A stretch of 64,000 nt of DNA from an uncultured Planctomycetota bacterium (lineage in GTDB: Bacteria; Planctomycetota; Planctomycetia; Gemmatales; HRBIN36). How positions within the stretch are numbered: the stretch's first letter is position 1; each line of letters opens with the position of its first letter. The position numbers were made by a program, and so were the translations under genes. The stretch spans positions 121,633-185,632 of the forward strand of contig CALFAY010000032.1 of assembly GCA_937944855.1 (NCBI GenBank), written 5' to 3'. This document shows positions 51,959 to 56,924 of the stretch, in pieces. A model generated the notes under the pieces. That model saw nothing but the letters and a program-made list of their open reading frames with translations, was not told the DNA's origin and searched no databases.

Positions 51959-52320
51959 CTACGAGCCAGCAAACAACATGCGCATAATCGAGTACCCTCT
52001 GGGCAATGCGGATTTCAGGCCTCTATAAGAAACCTCTGGGAGCGGTACTGCCCGGGTTCAACCCCAACGCGGCCGCCGAGACCGCTTCAACCGACTCGGC
52101 ATCGGCTCGATCGGCGGCCGTACGCCGGCAGGCTAGGACCTTTGGATGCATCAACACAGCGAAGGACGGCATTTCGCAGAGCCGTCCACGGTCGCGAGTC
52201 ATCGTCCGGGAACTGGACGATCATGCAGTGCGGAAGGTCCTCGCTTGAGTTATTCTTGAATTATCCGCTGCTTACCGCAGCAAGGGGTATCCGCCTGTGC
52301 TTGGACAGCAGGAGGGACGC

Positions 52321-53090
52321 ATGCTCGGTGCTATTGCTGGGGATATCATAGGATCCGTCCACGAGTTTACGGAAACAAAAACCAAACAATTCGATCTTTT
52401 CACACCCAACAGCAACTTTACTGATGACACGGTTTTAACCGTGGCCATTGCCGAGAAATTGTTGCGTGGCGGCAACTATGTGGACAATGTCGTGGACTAC
52501 TTTAATGCTTACCCGGACGCCGGCTATGGACAGATGTTCTTGCGCTGGGCGAGAAGCGGCTCACGCGAGCCTTACAACAGCTTCGGCAATGGCACAGCCA
52601 TGCGCGTCGCCCCCGTCGGCTGGGCATTTAAGACGCTCGACGAAGTCCTCAGTGAAGCGAAGGCCAGCGCCGAGGTGACGCACAACCACCCGGAAGGCAT
52701 CCGGGGCGCCCAGGCTACCGCCGCGGCCATCTTCCTCGCACGATCGGGATATTCGAAGGCTGATTTGAAGCAGTACATCGAGAAGAATTCGGCTACAACC
52801 TCTCGGAGAGGCTGGAGGACATCCGCGAGTCGTATTAATTCGACGAAACCTGCCAAGGCTCGGTTCCGCAGTCCATTATCGCCTTTTTAGAGTCCGAGAA
52901 TTACGAGGATGCAATTCGCAACGCCATTTCGCTGGGCGGCGATGCGGACACGATGGCTTGCATCGCGGGCGGGATCGCTGAAGCGTTTTACGGAGGTGTG
53001 CCGGACGACATCGCCTCTCGCGCTTTGGACATCCTCGACGATCGGCTTCGGCAGGTCGTCCACCAGTTCCGCAAGAAGTTCGTGAGCTGA
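52321..53090 (+). pseudogene. ADP-ribosylglycohydrolase family, frameshift plus in-frame stop
   Basis: MLGAIAGDIIGSVHEF, FTDDTVLTVAIAE, NGTAMRVAPVGW; shift near 52785 continues as EEFGYNLSERLEDIRESY*FDETCQGSVPQSIIAFLESENYEDAIRNAISLGGDADTMACIAGGIAEAFYGG. Confidence 0.88.
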
Positions 53091-53203: not shown

Positions 53204-53389
53204 ATGACTTCGCGGCGGAGCAAGTGGGGTTTTTCGTGGTCGTGGCGACGGGCCATCGGCTGGTCGGGGGCTAAGGCAAGGCTGTCGCGTCGGCTGGGCG
53301 TCCCTCTGACCCGTTCGGGCCGACAACGCAAACTCGGTCGTCTGATGGGATGCTGCCTCCCGCTTATGTTCCTATCCATTTTCCCTTAA
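53204..53389 (+). CDS. Small Arg-rich protein with hydrophobic C-terminus
   Basis: 61 aa MTSRRSKWGFSWSWRRAIGWSGAKARLSRRLGVPLTRSGRQRKLGRLMGCCLPLMFLSIFP; GGAG about 10 nt upstream. Confidence 0.35.
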   Translation: MTSRRSKWGFSWSWRRAIGWSGAKARLSRRLGVPLTRSGRQRKLGRLMGCCLPLMFLSIFP

Positions 53390-53399
53390 ATTAGGTATT

Positions 53400-53537
53400 G
53401 ACAGACCGATATTAAGTAGTAAACTAGGGCCAAAGCTCCTGAATTCCGTTGGCCTAGAGCCACTTATGCAGTGAGAGCTCAAAGCCACCAATGCATTGGC
53501 ACATAGCCACTTGGATAGGATAGCCCTGGAGGCTTAC
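53400..53537 (+). other. Structured noncoding stretch upstream of IS110-type remnant
   Basis: Hairpin arms ctagggccaa (53424-53433)/ttggcctag (53449-53457), palindrome ccaatgcattgg (53488-53499), agccac at 53458, 53483 and 53505. Confidence 0.4.
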
Positions 53538-53720
53538 ATGGTTCGGGAGCACAAGCTCATCGGGTTGCCGGAAGTGCAACCAATGCGTCCCTATGGGATC
53601 GGCATTGACGTTGCCAAGCACTTCCACGCCATCTCTGTATTGATTCCCGCACCGGCTTGATAGTCAGGTTGACGGTGACTTTTAGAGAAAAGGTGCGGTG
53701 TTGGTCGCTCCGCGGTGGGC
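53538..53720 (+). mobile_element. IS110-type transposase remnant (N-terminal fragment)
   Basis: MVREHKLIGLPEVQPMRPYGIGIDVAKHFHAISVLIPAPA*; GIDVAK resembles the DEDD N-terminal motif; possible shifted continuation RTGLIVRLTVTFREKVRCWS. Confidence 0.65.
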
Positions 53721-53734
53721 TCCTGCACCCGGGC

Positions 53735-54055
53735 TCGGGCCCAGTAGTTCTCCGTGCCCTCCTCAAAAATCAACTGCACGACCGACAGCCCGAAGATCGT
53801 CCGCGAACGGATGACCTCCACCTTCGGCACCGTGCGCATGGCGATCTCGATCGGGATGGTGACCTGGCGTTCCACCTCCTCCGGCGCCCGGCCCGGATAC
53901 ACCGTAATCACCTGCACCATCTGGGCGGAGATGTCGGGGTAGGCGTCGATGGGCTGCTGTTGAAACGCATAGATGCCGGCTGCGCCAATCCCCGCGACTA
54001 GAATCAGAACCAGTCAGCGGAACCGCATCGCGGCTTCGATCAAGGAGGCGATCAT
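53735..54055 (-). pseudogene. CusA/CzcA-type RND pump, N-terminal fragment with in-frame TGA (54014-54016)
   Basis: MIASLIEAAMRFR*LVLILVAGIGAAGIYAFQQQPIDAYPDISAQMVQVITVYPGRAPEEVERQVTIPIEIAMRTVPKVEVIRSRTIFGLSVVQLIFEEGTENYWARARVQE, then homology ends. Confidence 0.88.
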
Positions 54056-54090
54056 CGACGCCCCTCCCCCTGCTGAAGCGCCCGGACCGC

Positions 54091-55255
54091 CTAGGGTTTG
54101 AACAGAATAGCTCCCTTGGCAATGACCTGATCCGTGCCGCGCAGGCCGTCGAGAATCTGCACCTCGTTTCGGTAAGGATCGCCGACCTGGACCTCAGCGA
54201 CTCTCCAGGTGTTGTCGCCGTCTGCCACGAGAACATAATCCGACCGCCCGATGTGAAGGATGGCGTCGGCGGGAACCAGCAAGGCCTCGCGGGAGTCGGT
54301 GCCCAGGCCGATCTCGGCGAACATCCCGGGCCGCAGCTTGTCGTCAGGATCGTCGATCGTAAACAGGACGCGCAGCGACCGCCTTTCCGGGGACAAGACA
54401 GGAGCAATGCTTTGCACCCGCCCGGGGAAGCGTTCTTTGGGCAGGCCGAAGAGGCGAGCCACGCATCCTTGCCCGATGCGGACCTGATTGAGTCGCCCCT
54501 CGGGGACTTCAGCCATCACGATGTCCACGTCCGAAGTAACTGAGCGCAGCAATTCGATGCTCAGCCCGGCTTGCTGAAGCCGGCGGGCTTGCACGGCTTC
54601 TTCACGGCGCGCCATCCGCAAGGCCGTCTCTGCCTGATGGACTTCCTGTCGGCCGGTGATCTCGACCTGGATCAGGTTGGCCCGTTCGGCGGTCACTTCG
54701 CGCAGCGATTCAGTCCCCGCCTCGACAAGTTTCTCCAGACGCCGGACCAATTCCTGCTGCGCTATCAGGCGCCGCCGCCCACTGTTTTGCCTGCTCCAAC
54801 TGCGTCTCCAGAAAGGCGATGTCGGCTTGCGCTTTTTGCCAGTCGGTGAAGGCCGTCAGCGTTTCCACCGAGTCGAATTGCCAGTAGTCCTCCTCCTGCT
54901 CGTGGCCCGGACGAAGACTGGCGACCACCCGGCCGGTCACGGTTAAAACCGCATCGCTGATAACCTCCTGACGAACCGGCACGACTTCGATTTTCTGGTC
55001 GAACGGGCTTCCCGGGACGACGCGAATCCGGCCCGGCCCGACGATGGAAACGATCTCCTCTGGCGGAGCCACCCGTTCGACCGGCTGGGCCGGCGGTTCA
55101 AAGGGATCGACCAGGAGGTAAATCAGGAACGCAGCGGTTCCGGCCAAGGCGACGAGAAACTGGATGCTGGACTTCAGTCGGCTCCAACGCGAGGGCTTTG
55201 GAACCGCCTGGTCCTTGGAAGGAGTTGGGGCGACGAGCAGAGGATTCGTCGTCAT
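54091..55255 (-). pseudogene. CusB/CzcB-type membrane fusion protein, frameshifted near 54780
   Basis: 5' part MTTNPLLVAPTPSKDQ...QTQLEQAKQ-like LETQLEQAKQ; the other frame continues RRRLIAQQELVRRLEKLVEAGTESLREVTAERANLIQVEITG...RPGMFAEIGLGTDSREALLVPADAILHIG. Confidence 0.88.
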
Positions 55256-56510
55256 GGAGTGACCTTTTTCCCTAAGACCGCATTGAATCGCACGGCAGCC
55301 CGCCCCAGATTCGCCCGGCTTTCGATGAATAGGCGATAGGTTTCCCGGTAATTCCGCTGAGCGTCGAGGACGTCAATGAGCGGCCGTCCTCCTGCCTCAT
55401 ACGCTTTATTCAAGCTGTTACGAACTTCCTCTGCCGGCTTAAGCTGTTCCTCGGCTACCGCCTGAGCGTTGGCGCGTGCCGTCAGAAGGTCCTGGTAAGC
55501 CTGAACGACCTCGGCACGCAATTCCACGAGGCCGGCCTGCAATTCAAATTGTTGCTGGACGGCAGCCGAAGCGGCACGATAGCGATTGCCCTGGTTGCGG
55601 TCGAAAAGCGGCAGGCTCATTTCCAAGGCGACGCCCCAGGAATTCGCATCCGGAAATCCGATGGCCTTGCGTCGGAATTGCCGAGTGTAGCCGATTTGCG
55701 GCGCAATCTCTGGAAAGGCTTCGCGTCGCTCTGCCTGGACGACCGCCTGGCTTTGGCGGACCCGCCACAGAAGAGCGGAGATGTCCGGGCGGTTTTCGGC
55801 CGCAATCGCATAGGCTTGCTCCAGCGAAGGGATTTCGGGAACGCTGATCTCTTCCAGCGTCCCGCTCACGTCAAACGCCGGATCAAGGTCTCCCAGCCCC
55901 ATCAGAGCCCGAAGCCGAGCTTTGGCTGCCACCAGGTCATTCATTGCATGACGAACAGAAACCAGTCGATCGGGTACGACAGTCCGATGTCCAACTGCGG
56001 CGGACCGCCCTGCTTATCCTCCGTGAAGGGACGGGTTAGCGGAAGCAGGGTTTGGGAGATTCCCAGAGTCGGATTCGGCGTCAACGACGCCTGCAACGCC
56101 TCACCGACGGCTTGATTGATGGCTTCAAAACCAGCCCGCAGTCGGGGGTCAGCAAGAAGAACGGCGTTGATGACTTGATCCAGCGTCACCGCGTTGGGAG
56201 CCTGTGCATCCATCGGCGCTTCCGGGGAGGGTCGTGCGGGTCTGGGTGCCGGAAGCTGTTCGTCCTGCGCTTCTGCCGGCTTCGTCTCTCGACTCGCGGT
56301 TGCTGCCATCGAATTCGGAGGCAAACTCGCTGCCGTCCTTCCATCGAGCGACGTTTCCCAGGCCGAAGGACGGAGATCGGATACGCTGCTTATCTGGGGC
56401 TGTCCCCTGTCGAGCCAATGGCCAAGCTCAACGGAACAGCCCACGGCCGCAACGGTCGCCACTGCGGCCCAGAAGATGCCCCGAGTTCGATTTGCTGTTG
56501 AGTTGAGCAT
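55252..56510 (-). pseudogene. CusC/CzcC-type outer membrane efflux protein, internal deletion and frame change at about 55941
   Basis: N-half ends PPQLDIGLSYPIDWFLFVMQ*; C-half begins MNDLVAAKARLRALMGLGDLDPAF; the intervening helical region of the family is absent. Confidence 0.8.
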
Positions 56511-56585: not shown

Positions 56586-56924
56586 TTAAGAAGTCCCGCT
56601 TGCGTGTTTCGCCGCTTCTTCACCAGCCGGGCAATTGGGGGAACCTGGGACGGCCGCATCAGGTGCGAGAGCCGCCTCAATCCGATCCCAGACATCAGAC
56701 CTTCGCCAAGCGTCATAATAATGCCGAACCGTGGAACGGTTGGGAAAGCAGCTCGGTAAACCACGCCAGCCGCAGCCGTGGGCGAGCAGATAGCGAATCG
56801 CGTTGACGACCTCCCGTAAATCGACCCTTCGTCTGCGTCCGCCCTTGCCTGGCAGAGGGAGGAGCGGCTCGATGGCCGCCCACTGCGCGTCGGTCAGATC
56901 CCTGGGAAGGGCGTTTGGTTTCAT
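56586..56924 (-). mobile_element. IS5-type transposase N-terminal fragment
   Basis: DLTDAQWAAIEPLLPLPGKGGRRRRVDLREVVNAIRYLLAHGCGWRGLPSCFPNRSTVRHYYDAWRRSDVWDRIEAAL; stops without the catalytic region. Confidence 0.82.

What the first reader, a model, noticed from the sequence alone, without database searches (positions are those of the whole stretch)
53400..53720. Possible IS110 left end with bridge-RNA relic
A truncated IS110-type transposase start is preceded by about 140 bp of low-GC noncoding DNA with a 9-bp hairpin with one bulge (ctagggccaa/ttggcctag), a 12-bp perfect palindrome and three agccac motifs 22-25 bp apart. IS110 elements are known to carry a structured bridge RNA in a noncoding end, upstream of the recombinase in the IS110 group. 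This may be a recognisable relic.
Basis: partly seen in the sequence, partly recalled or inferred. Interest (0 to 1): 0.6.

Follow-up and report, generated by a model that had tools for sequence, protein, structure and literature searches.

The report
Broken IS110 start, no bridge-RNA relic
A 40-residue remnant of an IS110-type jumping gene sits in a decaying stretch of this genome, but the DNA in front of it shows no sign of the guide ("bridge") RNA that such elements carry, so this is ordinary mobile-element debris.

Summary
The sequence features are real. The hairpin arms (53424-53433/53449-53457), the palindrome (53488-53499), three AGCCAC motifs and an IS110-like start (53538-53657) are all present. 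Each non-coding motif arises by chance in 3-9% of shuffles. Their co-occurrence is unusual (1 of 926 window tiles) but was noticed after the fact. The 40-aa fragment is very probably an IS110 recombinase N-terminus: a profile of 17 same-class IS110 starts gives it 28.2 bits, against 19.6 for the best of about 310,000 other 16-mers. It has a good ribosome-binding site, then a premature TGA; an efflux-pump gene broken at 53720 follows.

The bridge-RNA reading is not supported. The region folds no better than chance (z -1.1 to -1.3). Seven intact same-class IS110 elements have left ends of 229-295 bp and place structured RNA mostly 250-75 nt before the start (best window z -3.5 to -7.3); their start-proximal 125 nt is unstructured. 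Here the corresponding distal stretch is a conserved unrelated small gene (53204-53389), leaving at most about 150-165 bp of left end. No guide/flank match exceeds shuffles. No relative was found in any collection searched, so alignment and covariation could not be tested.

The parts
53538..53660 (+). Truncated IS110-type DEDD recombinase N-terminus (40 aa, MVREHKLIGLPEVQPMRPYGIGIDVAKHFHAISVLIPAPA, then TGA)
   Evidence: Profile from 17 same-class IS110 N-termini: 28.2 bits; next best of 309,715 16-mers 19.6. No Pfam/NCBIfam/PHROG hit, as only about 19 residues of the domain remain.
53526..53531 (+). Shine-Dalgarno-like TGGAGG before ATG 53538
   Evidence: Read directly from the sequence.
53390..53537 (+). 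Low-GC non-coding stretch before the recombinase start; at most the start-proximal part of an IS110 left end
   Evidence: z-score of fold -1.1 to -1.3; bounded on the left by a conserved small gene ending at 53389.
53424..53457 (+). Imperfect inverted repeat (9 bp, one bulge, 15-nt loop)
   Evidence: 8.6% of shuffles hold one as good; not in the RNA minimum-energy fold.
53488..53499 (.). 12-bp perfect palindrome CCAATGCATTGG
   Evidence: 4.6% of shuffles.
53458..53510 (+). Three AGCCAC motifs (53458, 53483, 53505); copies 1 and 2 share 13 of 16 bases
   Evidence: absent from the left ends of seven same-class IS110 elements on either strand.
53398..53425 (+). Sigma-70-like promoter match TTGACA-N16-TAAACT (10 of 12)
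   Evidence: 1 found against 0.3 expected in the 651-bp region; consensus match only.
53204..53389 (+). Conserved 61-aa small gene of unknown function that limits the element's left end
   Evidence: 60-61% identity in two same-class genomes and 63-68% in five viral contigs; conserved segment reaches about 53374.
53720..54061 (-). Broken 5' part of a CusA/AcrB-type RND efflux gene (in-frame stop near its start; homology ends abruptly at 53720)
   Evidence: DNA of many relatives begins to match exactly at 53720; the intact 1036-aa relative is in L098; the rest of the gene is not found in the own genome.

Best explanation
An IS110-family insertion sequence once lay here in + orientation, just after a small conserved gene. 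Only the first 40 codons of its recombinase and at most about 150-165 bp of upstream DNA survive. A deletion or rearrangement removed the rest of the element together with about 90% of the neighbouring efflux-pump gene, leaving the junction region 53658-53719. The fragment cannot encode an active recombinase. The upstream DNA shows no bridge RNA: either that part of the left end was lost too, or the element was of a sort (for example IS1111-type) that keeps its RNA at the other, missing end. Shown: the IS110-like N-terminus, the broken efflux gene, absence of RNA-fold signal, the conserved small gene on the left. Inferred: the order of events, and that the left end is incomplete.
For: The IS110 profile score is well above background. 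TGGAGG and ATG are in place. The RND gene matches relatives up to 53720 and no further, and its remainder is missing from the genome. Intact same-class IS110 elements (two copies each) have left ends of 229, 256, 291, 241, 265, 295 and 253 bp. Their fold signal lies mostly between 250 and 75 nt before the ATG (best window z -3.5 to -7.3), with about zero in the last 125 nt, while the window has no z below -0.8 anywhere in 300 nt. Positive controls fold as long bridge-RNA-like structures (L122 z -7.2, L143 z -4.5). The small gene at 53204-53389 has real homologues, so at most about 150-165 bp can be left end.
Against: Only 16-19 residues carry the IS110 signal and no full-length relative was found. 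The low GC and the joint presence of three motifs are a little unusual. Bridge RNAs vary in structure, and one worn by mutation could lose its fold signal.
Confidence: 0.8

Rival explanations
1. 53400-53537 is a recognisable, slightly decayed bridge RNA of an IS110-group element with an unusually short left end.
For: It lies directly upstream of an IS110-type start, with low GC, an inverted repeat, a palindrome and repeats. The published lower size of about 150 nt for bridge RNAs (PMC11208160) would just fit.
Against: Fold z -1.1 to -1.3 against -3.5 to -7.3 for the best windows of seven intact same-class left ends; wrong position relative to the ATG; available length below all seven yardsticks. 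No Rfam match. Guide/flank matches no better than shuffles: best sum 14, where 93 of 100 shuffles reach 14 or 15.
Confidence: 0.05
2. The 40-aa frame is not IS110 at all but a chance open frame, so the whole reading is an artefact.
For: No database relative found in any search; 40-aa open frames are common; no Pfam hit.
Against: The match to the IS110 N-terminal profile is 8.6 bits above the best of 309,715 other 16-mers, several of which had been fetched for similarity to this very fragment. Good ribosome-binding site and position next to a rearrangement break.
Confidence: 0.1
3. The element was of the IS1111 group: its RNA lay at the lost right end, and the left end never held one (a special case of the best explanation).
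For: Left end limited to about 165 bp without structure; IS1111 elements keep the RNA downstream (PMC11208160).
Against: Group membership cannot be read from 40 residues; the right end is gone.
Confidence: 0.25

Closest known systems
IS110 family (DEDD recombinase, PF01548; IS621 as type example)
   Same: N-terminal RuvC-like motif GIDVAK..H..SVL at the expected place, ATG with ribosome-binding site, non-coding DNA upstream
   Different: Only 40 residues left; no catalytic domain, no right end; no structured RNA signal upstream; left end at most about 165 bp against 229-295 bp in same-class elements
IS110 bridge RNA (Durrant et al. 2024, PMC11208160)
   Same: Located before the recombinase start
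   Different: No fold signal, no guide matches, wrong distance from the start codon, hairpin and palindrome each at chance level
IS1111 group
   Same: Same recombinase family; a left end without RNA would be expected
   Different: Subterminal inverted repeats and right end cannot be seen

Membership tests
IS110 family | DEDD recombinase with N-terminal RuvC-like motif (GIDVxK) | tested here: met
   28.2 bits to the profile of 17 same-class IS110 N-termini against 19.6 for the next best; only the first motif is present
IS110 family | Remaining DEDD residues and C-terminal Tnp domain with catalytic serine | tested here: not met
   Frame ends at TGA 53658; PF01548 not found anywhere in the own genome; so a fragment, not a working member
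IS110 family | Element boundaries with core dinucleotide, second copies or empty site | tested here: inconclusive
   Single copy in own genome; no copy in relatives; right end missing
IS110 bridge RNA | Structured RNA of about 150-250 nt in the left end | tested here: not met
   z -1.1 to -1.3 overall, no 100-nt window below -0.8; seven same-class controls reach -3.5 to -7.3
IS110 bridge RNA | Loops complementary to target flank and donor junction | tested here: inconclusive
   Best direct-plus-inverted match equals shuffles, but the boundary is unknown and the right half is missing
IS110 bridge RNA | Covariation among relatives | not testable with these tools
   No relative found in the related genomes searched by protein, about 85,000 species genomes, plasmids, phages or viral contigs
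IS1111 group | Subterminal inverted repeats and RNA in the right end | not testable with these tools
   Right end deleted

The most novel reading that the evidence does not exclude
The fragment belongs to an IS110 subfamily with an extended N-terminus (about 20 residues before GIDV) that has no relatives in the collections searched, and whose guide RNA is unusually short (150 nt or less) and weakly folded, using the AGCCAC repeats as part of its recognition architecture.
Probability: 0.03. Interest if true: 0.45.

Novelty: new member of a known kind. Interest (0 to 1): 0.1.

Why it matters
Little by itself: it is debris of a known transposon family. The useful part is the yardstick. Seven intact IS110 elements of the same class show that bridge-RNA-like structure sits well upstream of the start codon and is easily seen by a fold z-score, so a low-GC stretch with small repeats right before an IS110 start should not be called a bridge RNA.

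Tried and rejected
Own-genome and relative-genome searches with DNA and with the 40-aa fragment gave only chance matches; the loci examined encode other proteins. Two scans of about 85,000 species genomes with peptide- and DNA-patterns, three viral scans, plasmids and phages by protein and DNA found no relative; a 30-bit Variovorax hit (E = 5) lies in a stretch without annotated genes and was left as chance. The missing half of the efflux gene was sought in the own genome as a way to the element's right end; only a 272-bp stretch matching DNA beyond the 3' end of the pump gene was found, on another contig. A covariance model was not built: no homologous left ends were available, and a model from IS621 relatives (found) would not be a test of this element. 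The 32-bp 88% match in a relative lies inside an unrelated coding frame.

Full report
What is there. In 2000 dinucleotide-preserving shuffles of 53400-53537 a hairpin at least as good occurs in 8.6%, a 12-bp palindrome in 4.6%, a 6-mer three times in 2.9%, and two or more of these in 0.65%; in 926 real tiles of the window ten hold at least two and this tile alone holds all three. So none is notable alone, and the combination is mildly notable but was chosen after the fact. The low GC is not specific to the marked stretch. A sigma-70-like match TTGACA-N16-TAAACT lies at 53398-53425.

The reading frame. ATG 53538 follows TGGAGG and opens 40 codons up to TGA 53658. Pfam, NCBIfam and PHROGs do not recognise it, which is expected because only about 19 residues of the domain remain. 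I collected IS110 proteins of the same taxonomic class (PF01548 in 129 of 298 genomes), took 17 of their N-termini and scored all stop-free 16-mers of the window and of the other loci fetched: IGIDVAKHFHAISVLI gets 28.2 bits, the next best of 309,715 gets 19.6. I take it as an IS110 N-terminus at about 0.9.

Neighbourhood. On the right, a CusA/AcrB-type efflux gene on the - strand matches the DNA of many relatives up to exactly 53720 and no further. In the same-genus genome it is an intact 1036-aa gene. The missing part is not elsewhere in this genome. The window copy also has an in-frame stop near its start. On the left, an ADP-ribosylglycohydrolase gene is split into two frames, 52297-52890 and 52953-53090. 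After it comes a 61-aa frame, 53204-53389, which proved to be a real gene: 60-61% identity in two same-class genomes and 63-68% in five viral contigs, with the conserved part reaching about 53374. An IS5-type transposase fragment lies at 56586-56924. The region is one of decay and rearrangement.

Is it a bridge RNA? The fold of 53400-53537 has z -1.3 and -1.1; 53388-53537 has -1.3; the isolated hairpin has -0.1 and its arms do not pair in the minimum-energy fold. Rfam has no relevant match. A search for the two matches that a bridge RNA needs on the left side (direct match to the left flank including the core, inverted match to the first bases of the element; pairing rules from PMC11208160) gives a best sum of 14, where 93 of 100 shuffles reach 14 or 15.

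Yardstick. I fetched two copies each of IS110 elements from same-class genomes and took the shared stretch as the element. For seven elements with a clear start the left ends are 229, 256, 291, 241, 265, 295 and 253 bp (an eighth, G170a, gave 373 with an uncertain boundary and no fold signal in its first 177 nt). In 100-nt windows relative to the ATG the fold signal is strong mostly in windows starting 250 to 150 nt before it (best z per element -3.7, -7.3, -4.9, -6.7, -3.5, -4.5, -7.3; in two elements the best window starts at -300 or -275), and about zero in the windows starting at -125 and -100. The window shows nothing below -0.8 from -300 to the start. Two controls fold into long structures with z -7.2 and -4.5. 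None of the seven left ends holds AGCCAC on either strand.

What could not be done. No relative of the fragment was found in the own genome, in 249 and 392 genomes (overlapping sets) searched by protein, in scans of about 85,000 species genomes, or in plasmid, phage and viral collections. Direct tests by alignment and covariation are therefore open, and the IS110/IS1111 group of the element is unknown. If it was of the IS1111 group its RNA would have been at the lost right end (PMC11208160).

Verdict. Real, ordinary debris of an IS110-family element; bridge-RNA relic not supported (probability about 0.05).

Noticed in passing
53204-53389 (+): A 61-aa small protein (GFSWSWRRAIGWSGAKARLSRRLGVPLTRSGRQRKLGRLMGCC) with 60-68% identical homologues in two same-class genomes and five viral contigs, but no hit in Pfam, PHROGs or NCBIfam; an undescribed small family shared by bacteria and viral contigs.
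   Followed up: partly
53720-55944 (-): CusCBA-like efflux operon in decay: pump gene cut at 53720 with an in-frame stop near its start, membrane-fusion gene split into two frames; intact in the same-genus genome.
   Followed up: partly
52297-53090 (+): ADP-ribosylglycohydrolase gene split by a frame change and an internal stop.
   Followed up: no
56586-56924 (-): Fragment of an IS4/5-type transposase (DUF4096), another mobile-element relic.
   Followed up: no
53398-53425 (+): Good sigma-70-like promoter match TTGACA-N16-TAAACT just before the marked hairpin.
   Followed up: no
L122 (421-570), L143 (430-579): Intact IS110 elements of the same class with very strong bridge-RNA-like folds (long 17-18 bp stems, z -7.2 and -4.5), good material for a class-specific covariance model.
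   Followed up: partly
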